From positions 806,001 through 870,000 of the forward strand of contig NZ_FNWJ01000001.1 in NCBI RefSeq assembly GCF_900108055.1: DNA of 64,000 bases. Direction: 5' to 3'. The notes below the pieces were generated by a model, which was given only the letters and a program-made list of their open reading frames with translations, was not told the DNA's origin and ran no database searches. Shown here in pieces: positions 28,987-40,304 of the stretch (within the stretch, counting starts at the first letter, position 1; the number at the start of each line of letters is the position of its first letter). Made by a program: the position numbers and the translations under genes. Source of the DNA: Thermoleophilum album (GTDB lineage: Bacteria > Actinomycetota > Thermoleophilia > Solirubrobacterales > Thermoleophilaceae).

Positions 28987-30552
28987 TCAGAGGGGGATGT
29001 TGCCGTGCTTGCGCTTGGGTGTTTCGACGCGCTTGGTCTCGAGCACCTCGAGTGCGCGGATCAGCCGCGGGCGCGTTTCGTGGGGAAGGATGACGTCGTC
29101 GATGTACCCGCGTTCCGCCGCCGCGTAGGGGTTGGCGAAACGAGCCCGGTAATCGGCGATCAACTTCTGTCGCCGCTCTTCCGGAGTCGGCGAGTTCTGG
29201 ATATCGCGACGGAAGATGATGTTGACGGCGCCCTCGGGACCCATCACCGCGATCTCCGCGGTCGGCCAAGCGAAGTTGAAGTCGGCGAGCATGTGCTTCG
29301 ACGCCATCACGTCGTAGGCACCGCCGTACGCCTTGCGCGTGATGACCGTGACCTTCGGCACCGTCGCCTCCGTGTAGGCGTAGAGCAACTTCGCGCCACG
29401 CCGGATGATGCCGCCCCACTCTTGGCTCGTGCCGGGCAGGAAGCCGGGCACGTCGCAGAACGTGACGAGCGGGATGTTGAAGCAGTCGCAGAAGCGGACA
29501 AAGCGAGCCGCCTTCTCTGACGCGTCGATGTCAAGCACGCCGGCCAGTTGATTCGGTTGGTTGCCGACCACGCCGACGGCCCGGCCGCCGAGTCGCGCGA
29601 AGCCGATCACGATGTTGCGCGCGAAGTGCTCCTGAACCTCGAAGAACTCGCCGTTGTCGACAATCAGGTGGATCACGTCGCGCATGTCGTACGGCTTCGC
29701 GGGATCGTCGGGCACTACCCGATCGAGCTCGGGATCCATGCGATCAGGGTCGTCCCCGGTGTCCATGCGCGGCGGTAGCTCGAGGTTGTTCTGGGGAAGG
29801 AACGAGAGCAGGTAGCGCACGTCCTCGAAGCAGCTCTCCTCGTCCTCGCAGGCGAAGTGTGCGACCCCCGATTTCGTCGCGTGGGTCATCGCGCCGCCGA
29901 GCGACTCGAAGTCGACCTCCTCACCGGTCACTGTTTTGATCACGTCGGGACCGGTGATGAACATGTGCGACGTGCCCTTGATCATGAAGATGAAGTCCGT
30001 CATCGCTGGTGAGTAAACAGCGCCCCCGGCGCACGGTCCGGCGATGATCGAGATCTGGGGAATCACGCCCGACGACATCACGTTGCGGACGAACACGTCG
30101 CCGTAGGCGCCGAGCGACACAACGCCTTCTTGGATGCGCGCGCCGCCGGAGTCGTTGATGCCGATCACCGGGCAGCCGATCTTGGCGGCGAGGTCCATGA
30201 TCTTGCAGATCTTCTCGCCCATTACCTCGCCCAGCGAGCCGCCGAAGACGGTGAAGTCCTGGGAGAACACGCAGACCGGGCGCCCGTCGATGGTGCCGTG
30301 GCCGGTGACCACGGCGTCGCCCCACGGCCGGTTCTTGAGCATGTCGAAGTCGAAGGTGCGATGGCGCACGAAGGTGTCGACTTCGACGAACGAACCGGGA
30401 TCCAGCAGCTTGTCGATCCGCTCGCGCGCCGTTAGCTTGCCGCGCTCGTGCTGCTTGCGCTCAGCTTCGGGGCTGGGGTGACGGGCCTGTTGGCGAAGCT
30501 CCTCGAGCTGCGCCACCTTTTCCTCGAACGTCTCCGGCGACTTCTGGCGCAT
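28987..30552 (-). CDS. pccB: Acyl-CoA (propionyl/acetyl-CoA) carboxylase beta subunit
   Basis: Carboxyltransferase that moves CO2 from biotin to acyl-CoA. The 521-residue protein carries both crotonase-like halves. In the N-half are [32 protein letters not shown] and the oxyanion loop [12 protein letters not shown]. In the C-half are [34 protein letters not shown] and [11 protein letters not shown]. Asp in VLDID and the overall match favour the propionyl-CoA-using group, but dual use is common. The ATG at 30552 ([12 protein letters not shown]) is chosen; the frame upstream to 30678 is Arg/Pro-rich and unlikely. First gene of the operon with the GT87-like and epsilon-like genes. Confidence 0.95.
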
Positions 30553-30673
30553 CGGGGCGGGAACTCTAGCGGGGGGCGGAAGTCGATGATGGGAGCCGGC
30601 TACTCGGCCCGCACGGCGGCCACGTGCGGTGCGTCGGGTTCGGTTGGCCGGGTGTCCGAGTGACCGCTGTGGA

Positions 30674-30679
30674 TACAAT
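30674..30679 (+). promoter_or_regulatory. -10-like element before the DUF305 gene
   Basis: TACAAT ends only 8 nt before the ATG at 30688, with GGGGGT between. If functional, the mRNA would have almost no leader. Confidence 0.3.
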
Positions 30680-30687
30680 GCGGGGGT

Positions 30688-31452
30688 ATGGTTTCAACGA
30701 CCGTCACCGAGCGTCGAGAACTGGAATCCGATCGTCGCGACTCGAGCTCGAGTTCGCGGCCGGCCGCGGGTGTTGCACAAGCGGTTAGCGCACGTGCCGA
30801 CCGCGCGCGGCCACGCTTGCTGGCCGGTCTCGCAGGCGTGGCCGTGGCGGCGCTGCTCGCGGCTTGCGGTGGTTCGTCGGGCGGCGGCGAACGCGGGCTC
30901 GCCGCTCCCGGTCGCGCCACCGACCGGGAGTTCATCGCGGCGATGATCCCTCATCATCAAGGTGCGATTGCGATGGCGCGCGTCGCCACCCGTCGCGCTG
31001 AGCATCCGGAGATCCGCCGGCTGGCCCAGTCCATCATCTCCGCCCAGGAGCGCGAAATCCGCGAGCTACGCCTGGTTCACCGCGATCTCTTCGGGGGTGA
31101 GCCGGGAAGCGCCCGCCCGCAACTGCTCGGCCTGTCGATGAGCGAGGCGGGGATGGCTCACGACACCGCGATGCTCGAGACGGCCCGGCCATTCGATCGG
31201 GCGTTCATCGACATGATGATCCCGCACCACGAAGGAGCGGTGCGGATGGCGAAAGTGGTCTTGAAACGGGGCTCAGATCCACGGCTCAAGCGCTTGGCAC
31301 GCGACATCGTGCGCACGCAGACCGCCGAGATCCGCAGTATGAAGCGCTGGCGGCAGCAGTGGTACGGCTCGTCCGCCACCATGCACGAGGGCGCGCCCCA
31401 GCCGAAATCGTCGCCGATGGGTGGCGCGGGAGCGCACGGCGGGGCGCACTGA
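30688..31452 (+). CDS. DUF305 lipoprotein
   Basis: A 254-residue exported protein. A hydrophobic segment ends in the lipobox LLAAC (Cys60), so it should be lipid-anchored on the outer face of the membrane; the N-region before it is unusually long (about 42 residues). The rest is a DUF305 (ferritin-like helical) domain with two MIPHHxGA motifs ([12 protein letters not shown] and [13 protein letters not shown]) and a His-containing C-terminus (AGAHGGAH). DUF305 proteins often accompany metal, especially copper, handling, but no such genes are next to it. It is divergent from pccB and convergent with the mutase gene. Confidence 0.88.
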
Positions 31453-31485
31453 ACTGCCTGTCGAGCGGGGGCGACTGACCTTCGA

Positions 31486-31524
31486 GCGGCGCGTTCGGCG
31501 CGCAGGGCGCGCCGAACGCGCCGC
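31486..31524. terminator. Strong bidirectional terminator
   Basis: A 17-bp perfect GC-rich inverted repeat (core GGCGCGTTCGGCGCG and its complement) with the 5-nt loop CAGGG, between the convergent DUF305 and mutase stops. It is the strongest hairpin I noticed in the window. Confidence 0.75.
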
Positions 31525-31529
31525 CACCT

Positions 31530-33149
<1,620 letters not shown>

Positions 33150-34962: not shown

Positions 34963-36585
34963 TCAGCGCGCCGATTGCGGGGCTGGTTCGGCTGGTCGTG
35001 GTCGAGGCGCGCGAACCGGCTCCACCAACACCGCCAACAGCGTCCGCCGCTTGAACGGCCGTATCCTCAGCGGCGCCCGGTCGGGGCTGCGCGAAGCGTC
35101 GCCGACGGCGCCCGTGGAAACCTGAACCGGGCAGGGGAGATCGGACAAGGTCGGGGCTCTCGGGCTCGACCCGCTCTTGCGCGCCGGGGAGGCACACAGA
35201 AACCGCTTCGACGGATCGTTCGGTGGCACGGTGACAACGCTCAGCCGAGGCTCGTAGTAGCGCACCGGCAGCACCCCGTCCGGAGCGACCACCACTGTTC
35301 CGACAGGCCCAACCGTGTGCGCCGCGAGCCGCGCGATGCCACGCCAGTCGGGCTTGCGGGCGAGCGGGTCGACCAGCGGCGCCGCGGTGCCCGCGGCGGC
35401 TGCCGAGACCACGAGCACCAAGGCCGGCCAAGCGACTGACCGGGGAGCTCGAGCGAAGCCAACGCCCACGAGCACAGCGAGCGGACAGGCGAGCCACAGC
35501 ACGTTGCGCGTCAACACGAAATCCTCGCCGAGCAGTGCCGCTACGAGGGGCGCTCCGACCCCCGCCAACGCCGCTACGAAGAGCAGCAACAGGACCGTTT
35601 GCGGTGGCTCGAGGGGACGGCTAGCGGCCGCGCCGGCAAGCGCGCGGTGGGCGGTCGGGGAGGCGATCCGGCGCACGCCGCCGGAGTTCCCGAGCGCGCG
35701 CTGCACGGCTAGCGCGAGCAGTAGCGCCGCCCCGATCGCGCCGGCGAGTGCCGACCAGGGCTCGAACAGAGCGTCGTAGCCCACGAGCAACTGCTTGGGC
35801 AGCTGAGCGAGGCGTCTCGCGAGCGGCTCGCTGGCGATGAAGCTGGCGTGGTCAGCTGAGCGTTGCGCGAGCAACAGGGGCGTCGCGAGGACCGCCGTGA
35901 AGAGTGGTAGAGCGGCGAGCGGGCCCGCTTGCCCCGCAACCGTCGGCCTTGCCAGCTGAAACCGCCGCGCTTGCCGGCGCGCGACGACCTCTCGGTAAAC
36001 GAGGTAGGTCGCGCACGCTCCGATAGGCGCGATCGCAAACCAGTGGGTGAGTACCGCAGCGGAGCCGCTCGCGGCGAAGACGAGCGTCGATCGGCGCGCC
36101 GCGGGGCGCAACAGCGCGCGCACGAACCCCCACAAGGCTGCGCTTACCAGGAGCGCGTAGAGGGAGTAGCTACGCGCCTCCTGGGCGTACCAAACGAGCA
36201 ACGGCGAGAGCGCCGCAACGACGCCCGTCGCCGCTGCTGCGCGGCGACCTGCCACCTCCTTTGCGATTGCCATCGCAACCAGCACGGTGAGTAGTCCCGC
36301 AAGGGCCGACAGAGCGCGCAAGGCGACCTCGCCGTCTCCCAACAGCCTCGTCGTGGCCCGCTCGAGCAGATAGAAGAGCGGCGGCGTCGACTCTTCGCGG
36401 GCTACCGCGTGAAGCATCGAGTCGAGCGGCAGCGACACAAGCCGTGCCGTTTGCGCCTCGTCGTACCAGACGCTCTGGAGCTCCAGGGTGGCGAAGCGCA
36501 GGATCGCCGTGAGCACGATGATCGAGACCAGTGCGACCACCACCGGAGCGCGCCGATGCAAGCGCGCGCCCAACCGCCCGAACAT
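34963..36585 (-). CDS. GT-C membrane glycosyltransferase (GT39/PMT-like)
   Basis: A 540-residue polytopic protein with about 11-12 hydrophobic helices. The first external loop holds the acidic motif VWYDEAQTARL, followed by STPPLFYLLERA, both characteristic of the dolichyl/undecaprenyl-phosphate-sugar-dependent GT39/ArnT group. A soluble C-terminal part of about 150 residues follows the last helix, with DWRGIARLAAH. Probable role: moving a sugar from a polyprenyl-phosphate carrier onto a lipid, glycan or protein outside the cell. The ATG at 36585 is used. An ATG at 36645 with a purine-rich upstream site is also in frame and would put its start on the same CATG as the divergent GGDEF gene. Confidence 0.82.
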   Translation of the reverse strand: MFGRLGARLHRRAPVVVALVSIIVLTAILRFATLELQSVWYDEAQTARLVSLPLDSMLHAVAREESTPPLFYLLERATTRLLGDGEVALRALSALAGLLTVLVAMAIAKEVAGRRAAAATGVVAALSPLLVWYAQEARSYSLYALLVSAALWGFVRALLRPAARRSTLVFAASGSAAVLTHWFAIAPIGACATYLVYREVVARRQARRFQLARPTVAGQAGPLAALPLFTAVLATPLLLAQRSADHASFIASEPLARRLAQLPKQLLVGYDALFEPWSALAGAIGAALLLALAVQRALGNSGGVRRIASPTAHRALAGAAASRPLEPPQTVLLLLFVAALAGVGAPLVAALLGEDFVLTRNVLWLACPLAVLVGVGFARAPRSVAWPALVLVVSAAAAGTAAPLVDPLARKPDWRGIARLAAHTVGPVGTVVVAPDGVLPVRYYEPRLSVVTVPPNDPSKRFLCASPARKSGSSPRAPTLSDLPCPVQVSTGAVGDASRSPDRAPLRIRPFKRRTLLAVLVEPVRAPRPRPAEPAPQSAR

Positions 36586-36643
36586 TCGCCCATTCCGCTG
36601 GAAAACGATCAAGGCTTGCCGATACGTTGGCTGGACCCGACCC

Positions 36644-37651
36644 ATGGAGACCCGCTCCCACCGCTCCTCGCGCGTGAACGCACTTGGCGGTCTGCTAGTG
36701 CTGACCGTCGCTTTCTCGATCTCAGCCGTCTACCACCTCGCCACCTGGGGGCGTCCGCACCGACCGGCACTCCTCGCAGCCCTCGGTGTCTCGTACCTGG
36801 TGGCGCTAGCGATCGTCGCTCTGCCGCCATCGCTCGTCTTCGGAACACGGCGGCGGCAAGTTGGCGTCGCTGCCTTCTGGAACATAGGGTGCGTCGCCCT
36901 GGTCGCCGTCTCCGCCGCGCTGGACGGCGGGCTGCGCAGTCCGATCGCGGCGATGATGTTCGTTCCCGTCGTCTTCGCCAGCGTCTCGTACGGCAGCGTT
37001 CCCCTGGTCGCGGCGGTCGGTCTGGCAGGTCTCGGATCGACGATCACGATCGGCCTGCTCGACGACAACGTCGGCTGGGCGCACGTGCTGATGTTCACGT
37101 CGGCGCTGGCGCTGGTCAGTGGGACCTGCGTCTGGCAGGCGCACATGGGGCGGCAGCGGCGCCGCCAGTTGGCCGAGGCTTCCCGCACGGACCCACTGAC
37201 CGGTTGCCTCAACCGGCGTGGCTTTGCGGAGCGCTACGAGCGAGCGGTCGAGGAAGCCGAGCGCACGGGCGTTCCCTTCGCGCTCGTGGAGTTCGATATC
37301 GATGGCTTCAAAGAGGTCAACGACATCTACGGACACGAGGCCGGGGATCGCTTGCTGGTTCAGCTGGTGCGGCGTGTACGAGGGGTGATGCGCAACGCCG
37401 ACGAAATCGCGCGGCTCGGCGGTGACGAGTTCGTGATCCTCGCCCCTGGCGCCGATCGCGAGGGAGCGCAAGCGCTCGTGGAGCGCATCGAGCGCGCCCT
37501 CTCGCCGCAGACGGGGAGCATTGGCGTGGCCGTCTACCCGCACGACGGCCGCACCCTCGACGAGCTTTACCGAGCGGCTGACGCCGGTGTCTACCGCACC
37601 AAACGTCAGCGCTGGGCGGAGCGGCGGGCGACCAGGCGCAGCGACGCCTGA
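36644..37651 (+). CDS. Membrane diguanylate cyclase (GGDEF), paralogue 1
   Basis: Makes c-di-GMP from two GTP. The 335-residue protein has six predicted helices (about 14-34, 41-61, 75-92, 100-117, 119-138, 145-165), then a GGDEF domain (about 180-330) starting RTDPLTGCLNRRGF. The active-site motif is intact (259-263) and an RNAD product-inhibition site sits five residues before it (250-253). No known sensor domain is present; the membrane part itself may sense. The start is fixed by alignment with its neighbour at 37819: both place 13 residues before the shared LGGL. Its ATG shares the CATG with an alternative start of the divergent GT-C gene. Confidence 0.9.
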   Translation: METRSHRSSRVNALGGLLVLTVAFSISAVYHLATWGRPHRPALLAALGVSYLVALAIVALPPSLVFGTRRRQVGVAAFWNIGCVALVAVSAALDGGLRSPIAAMMFVPVVFASVSYGSVPLVAAVGLAGLGSTITIGLLDDNVGWAHVLMFTSALALVSGTCVWQAHMGRQRRRQLAEASRTDPLTGCLNRRGFAERYERAVEEAERTGVPFALVEFDIDGFKEVNDIYGHEAGDRLLVQLVRRVRGVMRNADEIARLGGDEFVILAPGADREGAQALVERIERALSPQTGSIGVAVYPHDGRTLDELYRAADAGVYRTKRQRWAERRATRRSDA

Positions 37652-37772
37652 GCGGCGCTCGACATCTGTACGAGCGTCCGTCCCGCCGCTCGGGTAATTC
37701 GCAGAGTTGCCGACCTCGCTCCTCAAGACCCTTTGCGCCGCACGCCCGCGGCGCGACCGGCGGTGACCAACG

Positions 37773-37799
37773 ACCGGCCCGAGCAGGGGGCGGGCCGGT
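37773..37799 (+). terminator. Hairpin between the two GGDEF genes
   Basis: ACCGGCCCG...CGGGCCGGT, a 9-bp perfect stem with a 9-nt loop, ending a few bases before the GAGGAGGAGCG ribosome site of the second GGDEF gene. Either a terminator of the first gene or a leader structure of the second. Confidence 0.4.
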
Positions 37800-37818
37800 T
37801 ACCGAGGAGGAGCGAAGC

Positions 37819-38808
37819 GTGCAGCAAGAGCAGCGGGAGCGAGCGCGGGCGAATACGCTCGGAGGGCTGGCGTGTTCCTTGATCGCTTACGTCTTGACGG
37901 TTCCGTACATCGTCGCGACCTGGGAGCGACCGAATCGCTCGCTCATGCTTGCGGCGCTCTGCGCGGTGCTGGTCGAGATCGCCGTGATCTCGGTGCTCCC
38001 CTTACGCGTGGTGTTCAAAACGTCCTTGCGCGCACAGTTGATCGCCGCCGCCTGGAGCCTTTCGTGCGTGACCTTGGTCGCCTTCAACGCGAGCCTCGAC
38101 GGCGGGCTGGACAGTCCGCTGACACCTCTCATGTTCGTTCCGGTCGTCTTCGCCAGTCTCGTCTACGAGACCTGGCTGGTGGCGATCGTGGGCGCAGTCG
38201 GCCTCGGCGCGGCCGCCGCGGTCGGTCTGCTCGACGGGGACGCACGCTGGACGGAGACGTTCGTCTTCTGCGGCGCCGTGGCGGTCGTCTCTGGGACCTG
38301 CGTCTGGCAGGCGACGATGGCGCGCCGGCGGCGCGAAGAGCTAGCGATGATCTCGCGCACCGACCCTCTTACCGGTTGTCTGAACCGACGCGGGTTCGCT
38401 GAGCAGTTCGAAGCGGCCCGGGAGCGGGCGCGGCGTACCCGCGGCACGTTCGCCCTCATCGAGTTCGACATCGACGACTTCAAGCGCGTCAACGACGTCT
38501 ACGGGCACGAGACCGGTGACCGACTGCTGGTCCAGCTCGTGCGGCGGATGCGTCAGGTGGTGCGCACAGCCGACCCGATCGGGCGCTTGGGGGGCGACGA
38601 GTTCATGGTGCTAGCGGACGGCGCGGATCGGCCCGGCGCCGAGCGACTCGCGCAGCGCATTCGCAGCGCCATCGCACCACAGGTGATCAGCGTGGGGATC
38701 TCGGTTTTCCCGGAAGACGGGGAAAGTTTCGACGCGCTCTACAGAGCTGCGGATCGGCGCGTTTATCGCGAGAAGCAGGAGCACCAGACGGCCGCGCGTG
38801 AGCGCTAG
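37819..38808 (+). CDS. Membrane diguanylate cyclase (GGDEF), paralogue 2
   Basis: A 329-residue paralogue of the preceding gene, with the same six-helix N-terminal part and a GGDEF domain (motif 258-262). The I-site RTAD (249-252) is conserved. Shared segments such as RTDPLTGCLNRRGFAE, ETGDRLLVQLVRR and GTCVWQA show a recent duplication; the membrane parts have diverged more. The start is a GTG with GAGGAGGAGCG upstream. A 167-bp gap with a hairpin separates the two, so each may have its own promoter. Its stop and that of the convergent R2lox-like gene share one CTAG. Confidence 0.9.
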   Translation: MQQEQRERARANTLGGLACSLIAYVLTVPYIVATWERPNRSLMLAALCAVLVEIAVISVLPLRVVFKTSLRAQLIAAAWSLSCVTLVAFNASLDGGLDSPLTPLMFVPVVFASLVYETWLVAIVGAVGLGAAAAVGLLDGDARWTETFVFCGAVAVVSGTCVWQATMARRRREELAMISRTDPLTGCLNRRGFAEQFEAARERARRTRGTFALIEFDIDDFKRVNDVYGHETGDRLLVQLVRRMRQVVRTADPIGRLGGDEFMVLADGADRPGAERLAQRIRSAIAPQVISVGISVFPEDGESFDALYRAADRRVYREKQEHQTAARER

Positions 38809-40073
38809 CGGCCGAGGCTCCGTGCGAGGCGCACAAGCGAGCGAATCCGACCACGGGGACGCAGACGGCCCCGTAGGAACAGTTTGCGAGGGTCGTTGCG
38901 CCCGGCGACCACATCGACCCAGTCGTCGTAGCTGACCGCGAGTGTCACGTCGGGGTTCTCAACGCGCCCGCGCTGCGGCTCCGCGCGGCCATCAACGATC
39001 CGGATGAACCACGGTTCGGCGTCACGGAAGTCCCACTGCACCACCAAGCCGCCATTCGCAGCTCGGGGGTCGAGCGTCCGCGCGACCATGTCGAACAGCA
39101 GCTCCATCGTCTCGGGGTCGCGACGCGGGGGCCCGTTCGGTTCGCCGAGCACCCCCGCCTGGATCAGCTTGATCGCTCGCCGCGCGCGTTCCTCGGCGCT
39201 CAGGCCGAGCGGCATCACCGGCGGACCGGGAAGCTCCTCGACCGGCATGCCCGCGGCACGCAGTTTCTGCTCGAGCGAAGTCGCACCGATCGCGAAGATC
39301 TCCTCGATCGTGCGGCCGAACACCTCCGTGTAGCGGCGATCCCAGCCGGGCGGTACGAACACGGCGGCGCTGAAGGGCAGCACCTCGCGCAGCATCTCGG
39401 CGACCGCGTGGCGACAGTCGGGATCCTCGCGCTGCAGGTCGTAAAGCATGCGCACACCGAAGGCGATGTGGCGCTGCTCGTCGCGCGCGACGTTGCCCAT
39501 GCCCTCCCGGAAGCCGGGCAGCAACTGGCGCTCGGTGAGGTAGTCCTCGATGAAGTGCTGGCCGGTCTGCGCGAGCGTTCCCTCGATCACCAAGTGGTAG
39601 AGGCAGATCGCCGCCGCCAGCTGGGGGCGCGAGCGGTCACGCCGCAAGCGGTTGGCGACGTCGTCGAGTAGCTCGAACGTCTTGCGGAATCCCCAGGTCA
39701 GCTCGGGTCGCGTGCGTTCGAGCAGCCCATGGAAGTCGCCCCCGTAGTCGACCACCTCGCGCATGAAGCGGCCGAAGAAGACGGCGTGGCGCGCCTCGTC
39801 GACCTGCTGGGTCGTGAGGAAGTACTTCTGTTCCTCGCGCGGCGCGGCGTCGATGTAGGGGGAGAGGTTGTCGGCGACGGCGTCCTCACCGTGGAAGAAC
39901 AACGCGTAGTTCCAGAGCGCTGCGCGACGCTCGATATCCGATAGGCGCTCGTGCCACTGCTCGCGATCGCTCGAGAAGTCGATCGCCGTCGCCTGCCAGT
40001 TCTGCTGCTCCCAGCGGCGATAGAGGTCTTCGTAAGAAATCTGCTCAGCGACGATCGGGGGAGCCTCGTTCAT
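38805..40073 (-). CDS. R2lox-like diiron/Mn-Fe oxidase fused to SCP2 domain
   Basis: A ribonucleotide-reductase-R2-like helical bundle (about 1-235) plus a C-terminal SCP2/sterol-carrier-like domain (about 325-415, GGLVVQWDFRDAEPWFIRI and NPDVTLAVSYDDWVDVVAG). Metal ligands: E63, E93, H96, E164, E199, H202. It matches the R2-like ligand-binding oxidase group (M. tuberculosis Rv0233) in layout: IDFSSDREQW, GEDAV, YHLVIEG, LPGFREGM. The Val (V66) and Tyr (Y159) that form the ether cross-link there are both present. It is therefore unlikely to serve ribonucleotide reduction. Substrate unknown; the lipid-binding SCP2 domain suggests a hydrophobic one. The ATG at 40073 follows CGGAGG. Confidence 0.85.
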   Translation of the reverse strand: MNEAPPIVAEQISYEDLYRRWEQQNWQATAIDFSSDREQWHERLSDIERRAALWNYALFFHGEDAVADNLSPYIDAAPREEQKYFLTTQQVDEARHAVFFGRFMREVVDYGGDFHGLLERTRPELTWGFRKTFELLDDVANRLRRDRSRPQLAAAICLYHLVIEGTLAQTGQHFIEDYLTERQLLPGFREGMGNVARDEQRHIAFGVRMLYDLQREDPDCRHAVAEMLREVLPFSAAVFVPPGWDRRYTEVFGRTIEEIFAIGATSLEQKLRAAGMPVEELPGPPVMPLGLSAEERARRAIKLIQAGVLGEPNGPPRRDPETMELLFDMVARTLDPRAANGGLVVQWDFRDAEPWFIRIVDGRAEPQRGRVENPDVTLAVSYDDWVDVVAGRNDPRKLFLRGRLRPRGRIRSLVRLARSLGR

Positions 40074-40167: not shown

Positions 40168-40304
40168 GACAACCATGCAAAGAGATCCTAGCCATTGGCG
40201 TCGGCGCGATGGTGTATGCGGTGGGCGCCTGCGAGAATCGCTGCGGCCGGCACCGCAACTCGCCGGCTGGGAGCTTGTTCTGAAAAAACGGGGGATAGCT
40301 GGGC

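What the first reader, a model, noticed from the sequence alone, without database searches (positions are those of the whole stretch)
38805..40073. R2lox-like oxidase fused to an SCP2 lipid-binding domain
Seen: six metal ligands in the R2 order (E63, E93/H96, E164, E199/H202), plus V66 three residues after E63 and Y159 five residues before E164. That spacing equals the Val-Tyr pair that forms an ether cross-link in R2-like ligand-binding oxidases such as Rv0233. An SCP2-like domain (about 325-415) follows. Known R2lox proteins bind a fatty-acid-like ligand but have no settled substrate. A built-in lipid carrier domain would be a direct clue that the enzyme oxidises a lipid or long-chain hydrocarbon.
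Basis: partly seen in the sequence, partly recalled or inferred. Interest (0 to 1): 0.68.

Follow-up and report, generated by a model that had tools for sequence, protein, structure and literature searches.

The report
R2lox-like oxidase fused to SCP2 domain
This gene encodes a two-metal oxygen-activating enzyme with a lipid-carrier domain built onto its end; the pairing is conserved across a whole order of soil and hot-spring actinobacteria, so it is a good place to test what the poorly understood R2lox-type oxidases act on.

Summary
The 422-residue protein (window 38805-40073, minus strand) has an N-terminal domain with all six R2-type metal ligands and a C-terminal SCP2 domain (Pfam 1.4e-8, above cut-off). 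AlphaFold2 gives a confident two-domain model (pLDDT 95.5, pTM 0.92). Its best solved matches are all R2lox; the isolated C-terminal domain best matches the SCP2-like domain of the alkylsulfatase SdsA1. The fusion is ancient and under selection: 40 of 61 searched genomes (own plus 60 relatives in its order) carry it full length, another class of the phylum has it too, and all ligands plus V66, Y159 and A168 are invariant in 79 fusions.

Three corrections. V66 is not diagnostic, because true RNR R2 proteins also have Val there; A168 (Phe in R2) is the better marker. R2lox's conserved cavity tyrosine (Tyr175) is an invariant Gln172 here, the NCBIfam R2lox cut-off is missed, and the clade is sister to known R2lox: a new variant. 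The substrate question is no longer blank: a 2024 paper reports alkane oxidation by GkR2loxI, on weak evidence.

Best reading: a Mn/Fe or Fe/Fe oxygenase acting on a long-chain aliphatic substrate that the SCP2 domain binds. Cofactor, cross-link, ligand and substrate are inferred.

The parts
38805..40073 (-). Gene of the 422-aa R2lox-like/SCP2 fusion (ATG start; an upstream in-frame TTG at 40172 is not supported by homologues)
   Evidence: homologues start at the same region
39204..40037 (-). R2lox-like di-metal oxidase domain, residues 13-290
   Evidence: PF00268 2.1e-18; NCBIfam R2lox 5e-37, below cut-off; PDB R2lox hits
39885..39887 (-). E63, metal ligand (E69 of GkR2loxI)
   Evidence: invariant
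39876..39878 (-). V66, position of the cross-link valine (V72 of GkR2loxI); also Val in RNR R2
39786..39797 (-). E93..H96, metal ligands
39597..39599 (-). Y159, position of the cross-link tyrosine (Y162)
39582..39584 (-). E164, metal ligand
39570..39572 (-). A168, opens the ligand channel in R2lox (A171); Phe in all ten RNR R2 rows
   Evidence: role of A171 from PMC6399176 and PMC4118035
39558..39560 (-). Q172, replaces the conserved cavity Tyr175 of R2lox; invariant in 79 fusions
   Evidence: Tyr175 from PMC4118035
39468..39479 (-). E199..H202, metal ligands
38820..39113 (-). SCP2 domain, residues 321-418
   Evidence: PF02036 1.4e-8; profile vs PDB; fold match

Best explanation
A conserved two-domain oxidase. 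The N-terminal R2lox-like helical domain binds two metals (Mn/Fe or Fe/Fe), activates O2 and oxidises an aliphatic chain entering through the channel that the small Ala168 leaves open. The C-terminal SCP2 domain binds the long-chain lipid or hydrocarbon and presents it to the metal site, or shields it on the way, by analogy with the SCP2-like domain of alkylsulfatases. Shown here: the two domains, their folds (predicted), ligand conservation, conserved fusion, exclusion from RNR. Inferred: cofactor, cross-link, bound lipid, hand-over between domains, and the reaction (hydroxylation or desaturation).
For: Domains and ligands. AlphaFold2 model with confident domain arrangement, best solved matches all R2lox ahead of RNR R2. 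C-terminal domain matches SCP2 folds, best SdsA1, an enzyme of C12 alkyl chains, and also the ligand-binding MFE-2 SCP2 domain. Fusion kept full length in 40 of 61 genomes and in a second class, one clade in the tree. GkR2loxI co-purifies with C16/C18 hydroxy fatty acids and is reported to consume C10-C22 alkanes (PMC6399176; PMC10867098). Some relatives have a divergent TetR-type regulator directly upstream (about 8 of 46 loci), a pattern often seen with small-molecule-responsive genes (general knowledge).
Against: Gln172 replaces the cavity tyrosine conserved in R2lox, so the ligand and chemistry may differ. No conserved operon with electron-transfer or lipid-metabolism genes: the conserved neighbours look like housekeeping genes. 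Some full-length fusion paralogues in another class have lost a metal ligand and the tyrosine, so in them the SCP2 part is kept without the standard metal site. SCP2 domains can also serve structure or dimerisation.
Confidence: 0.6

Rival explanations
1. It is a dedicated n-alkane hydroxylase used for growth on hydrocarbons, as reported for GkR2loxI, with the SCP2 domain solubilising the alkane.
For: The genome belongs to Thermoleophilaceae, in the genus of the hot-spring bin HRbin41; Thermoleophilum species grow only on n-alkanes (PMC6741124; PMC6544083). The genome has no AlkB-type match (one desaturase, nearest the DesA model), no LadA-type match over cut-off, and three R2lox-like genes. 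GkR2loxI activity.
Against: The same fusion is conserved in soil relatives (Solirubrobacter, Conexibacter, Patulibacter) not known to live on alkanes, and is not in an alkane cluster. The genome has two P450s, and T. album has an AlmA-like enzyme (PMC6741124). The GkR2loxI evidence rests on crude lysates, and a two-ligand mutant kept most activity. That this genome is a Thermoleophilum is inferred, not shown.
Confidence: 0.15
2. It modifies an isoprenoid lipid (quinone, carotenoid or hopanoid), the SCP2 domain acting as UbiJ/UbiT do for ubiquinone hydroxylases.
For: Weak UbiT match (E 0.017) and UbiJ-SCP2 fold matches; wide conservation suits a core lipid.
Against: Alkyl-chain and fatty-acyl SCP2 domains match better; no quinone or isoprenoid genes conserved nearby.
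Confidence: 0.12
3. The SCP2 domain is a structural or dimerisation module and the oxidase acts on something else.
For: The SCP2 part is less conserved than the oxidase core (0.56 against 0.71 mean conservation); ligand-less fusion paralogues exist.
Against: The fold, with W347, W355 and G369 nearly invariant, is kept in the fused subfamilies tested, at SCP2 E-values of 1e-8 to 1e-14.
Confidence: 0.12
4. It is a ribonucleotide reductase small subunit with a C-terminal addition.
For: PF00268 match.
Against: The only RNR large subunit is class II; Ala168 instead of Phe and Phe100 at the radical-tyrosine position; RNR R2 forms a separate clade.
Confidence: 0.01

Closest known systems
[quoted passage not shown] erythraea 7QBP; NCBIfam PRK08326 models)
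   Same: Six metal ligands, Val and Tyr of the ether cross-link, Ala171 position, fold; best hits by sequence and structure
   Different: SCP2 domain added; Tyr175 replaced by Gln172; below all NCBIfam R2lox cut-offs; sister clade, not nested
Type III alkylsulfatases SdsA1, Pisa1, SdsAP
   Same: A catalytic part followed by a C-terminal SCP2-like domain in an enzyme of long alkyl chains; best fold match of the isolated domain
   Different: Unrelated catalytic domain (metallo-beta-lactamase fold, sulfate ester hydrolysis)
SCP2 domain of peroxisomal MFE-2 / sterol carrier protein 2
   Same: SCP2 fold and sequence profile (2.6e-8), likewise fused to lipid-acting enzymes
   Different: Eukaryotic fatty-acyl-CoA/sterol context; partner enzymes are hydratase and dehydrogenase
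Unfused R2lox-like paralogues in the same genome (G000:C1:373283-374071 and C1:965219-965911)
   Same: About 41% identical, same ligands, V, Y, A and the Gln; in the same sister group
   Different: No SCP2 domain; one lies beside an enoyl-CoA hydratase-like gene and a TetR-type regulator
Class I RNR small subunits NrdB/NrdF
   Same: Ferritin-like di-metal fold
   Different: Phe at 168, different clade, needs a class I large subunit, which this genome lacks

Membership tests
R2lox | Six ligands E/E/H/E/E/H in R2 spacing | tested here: met
   Invariant in 79 fusions, aligned to 3EE4/4HR0/7QBP/7QBK/6QRZ
R2lox | Val and Tyr residues that form the ether cross-link | tested here: met
   V66 and Y159 present and invariant; V alone is not diagnostic; the bond itself is not testable here
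R2lox | Ala (not Phe) at position 171, opening the ligand channel | tested here: met
   A168 in 79/79; Phe in 10/10 RNR R2 rows
R2lox | Conserved cavity tyrosine Tyr175 | tested here: not met
   Gln172 in 79/79; Tyr in all five reference R2lox; feature from PMC4118035
R2lox | Score above an NCBIfam R2lox cut-off | tested here: not met
   127.8 bits against 194; genuine R2lox controls pass theirs
R2lox | Falls inside the R2lox clade | tested here: inconclusive
   Sister to the known R2lox clade, both apart from RNR R2 (SH-aLRT 95 to 100); the root is by midpoint
R2lox | Mn/Fe cofactor, cross-link, bound fatty acid | not testable with these tools
   Needs purified protein
SCP2 (PF02036) | Profile match above gathering score | tested here: met
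   35.4 bits against 21.3
SCP2 (PF02036) | SCP2 fold | tested here: met
   AlphaFold2 pLDDT 93.7; PDB SCP2 matches at 1e-7 and better
SCP2 (PF02036) | Lipid binding | not testable with these tools
   Needs a binding assay
Class I RNR R2 (NrdB/NrdF) | Phe at the 168 position, class I large subunit in the genome, place in the R2 clade | tested here: not met

The most novel reading that the evidence does not exclude
A separate, previously undescribed family of lipid or hydrocarbon oxygenases in Thermoleophilia and a second actinobacterial class: a sister group of R2lox with a Gln in place of the cavity tyrosine, in which a covalently attached SCP2 domain hands a long-chain substrate to the di-metal site; in the Thermoleophilaceae it may take part in the first step of obligate n-alkane use.
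Probability: 0.25. Interest if true: 0.75.

Novelty: new variant of a known kind. Interest (0 to 1): 0.6.

Why it matters
The natural substrates of R2lox oxidases, including the Mycobacterium tuberculosis protein Rv0233, are unsettled. A fused lipid carrier, conserved over a whole order with an intact metal site, points to a lipophilic substrate and gives a construct in which carrier and oxidase can be tested apart and together. I found no paper in the library that mentions R2lox with SCP2.

Tried and rejected
RNR small subunit: rejected by tree, marker residues and a class II-only RNR. Gene neighbourhood as a guide to function: no conserved operon in 46 loci; an upstream glycyl-tRNA synthetase-like gene and a downstream Lon-like gene look positional; only a divergent TetR-type regulator in about 8 loci is suggestive (a first attempt, timed out). 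Viral contigs: no relative. V66 as a hallmark of R2lox: rejected, Val also in RNR R2. Long-branch rows in the first tree were removed and the groups held. A link to long-chain diols in Thermoleophilum: no paper found. Domain orientation and pocket contacts could not be measured because model coordinates are not supplied to scripts.

Full report
WHAT IS THERE. The minus-strand ORF at window 38805-40073 encodes 422 residues from an ATG. Pfam finds Ribonuc_red_sm over residues 15-230 (2.1e-18) and SCP2 over 339-410 (1.4e-8, above its cut-off); the next best C-terminal match is the alkylsulfatase C-terminal domain, just below its cut-off. Every NCBIfam R2lox model outranks the RNR models, but none reaches its cut-off (best 127.8 bits against 194). 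The best solved relatives of the N-terminal part are R2lox structures, and of the C-terminal part SCP2 domains.

IT IS NOT CHANCE OR A MISASSEMBLED FUSION. Among 61 searched genomes (own plus 60 relatives), 40 carry a full-length match and two more carry it broken by a contig end (my count). In a class-wide sample full-length matches stay within the window's own order; in a phylum-wide sample they reappear in two families of another class. Named relatives include Solirubrobacter soli, Conexibacter and Patulibacter isolates. In 79 fusions the six ligands, V66, Y159, A168 and Q172 are all invariant. The oxidase core is more conserved than the SCP2 part (0.71 against 0.56).

WHERE IT BELONGS. On an 80-row tree the RNR R2 proteins, three of the four checked being over NCBIfam RNR cut-offs, separate with 100/99 support. 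Known R2lox proteins (five crystal-structure sequences plus mycobacterial relatives) form one group; the fused proteins and unfused Thermoleophilia paralogues form a second, sister group. After removal of long branches the fused rows are one clade (SH-aLRT 96), known R2lox one clade (95) and RNR R2 one clade (100), so one origin of the fusion is enough. The root is by midpoint.

MARKER RESIDUES. Against the reference sequences, A168 equals A171 of GkR2loxI, which lines the fatty-acid tunnel and is Phe in RNR R2; all ten RNR rows have Phe and all reference R2lox have Ala. The tyrosine that R2lox proteins conserve in the cavity (Tyr175) is Gln172 here, in every fusion and in most unfused sisters. 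Phe100, four residues after the His ligand, stands where class Ia/Ib RNR R2 has its radical tyrosine (position from general knowledge of E. coli R2). The genome's only RNR large subunit is class II.

STRUCTURE. AlphaFold2 with 72 sequences gives pLDDT 95.5 and pTM 0.92 for the whole protein. Foldseek ranks R2lox structures first and Chlamydia R2c next. The C-terminal domain alone (pLDDT 93.7) best matches SdsA1 solved with 1-dodecanol or a decane sulfonate, then human SCP-2L and Pisa1. A sequence profile of the domain agrees. SdsA1, Pisa1 and SdsAP pair a catalytic domain with a C-terminal SCP2-like domain. The architecture thus has a precedent in enzymes of long alkyl chains.

CONTEXT. In the window the gene stands alone: two tandem GGDEF genes converge on it (the second overlaps its end by 4 bases), and a sugar transferase gene starts divergently upstream. 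In 46 relatives no operon is conserved; about eight have a divergent TetR-type regulator directly upstream. The genome belongs to the family Thermoleophilaceae and the genus of bin HRbin41 (matching contigs). It may be a Thermoleophilum, whose species use only n-alkanes, but that is not shown. It has no AlkB-type match and no LadA-type match over cut-off; it has two P450s, one near the CYP152 peroxygenases, one rubredoxin, and two further unfused R2lox-like genes.

MECHANISM. Most likely an O2-activating Mn/Fe or Fe/Fe enzyme that oxidises an aliphatic chain reached through the Ala168 channel, with the SCP2 domain binding that chain. GkR2loxI co-purifies with C16/C18 hydroxy fatty acids and was reported to consume C10-C22 alkanes, but in crude lysate, and the double ligand mutant lost only part of the activity. 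Shown: domains, predicted folds, conservation, phylogeny. Inferred: metals, cross-link, lipid, hand-over, reaction. A general lipid substrate suits the wide spread in soil genera better than a growth-on-alkane role.

VERDICT. A real, conserved, apparently undescribed architecture: a new variant of the R2lox kind. It sharpens the R2lox substrate question without answering it.

Noticed in passing
L168 1932-3251, L169 1923-3239, L154 1971-3239: Full-length fusion paralogues in another class have lost the first metal ligand (Glu63 to Val) and the tyrosine (Cys or Thr); two of them have a Glu one helical turn later. They may be metal-site variants or inactive carriers.
   Followed up: partly
G000:C1:965219-965911 (L003), G000:C1:955405-955545 (L215): An unfused R2lox-like paralogue lies next to an enoyl-CoA hydratase-like gene and a TetR-type regulator, about 10 kb from the genome's single rubredoxin.
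   Followed up: partly
window 36488-38808: Two tandem GGDEF genes, also present in the sister species, the second overlapping the end of the fusion gene by 4 bases.
   Followed up: no
L213 1342-2640: A P450 close to the CYP152 fatty-acid peroxygenase family (544.5 bits, cut-off 600) in the same genome.
   Followed up: no
window 28987-33149: Carboxyl-transferase (acyl-CoA carboxylase type) and methylmalonyl-CoA mutase genes near each other, fitting propionyl-CoA handling.
   Followed up: no
L203 2659-3624, L204 1851-2777: A further R2-like group in this family keeps the ligands, Val and Tyr but has Phe at the Ala168 position, as RNR R2 does.
   Followed up: no
L139: A record titled Chlamydiae bacterium carries the fusion; its gene neighbours match those of Solirubrobacterales, so the label is probably wrong.
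   Followed up: no
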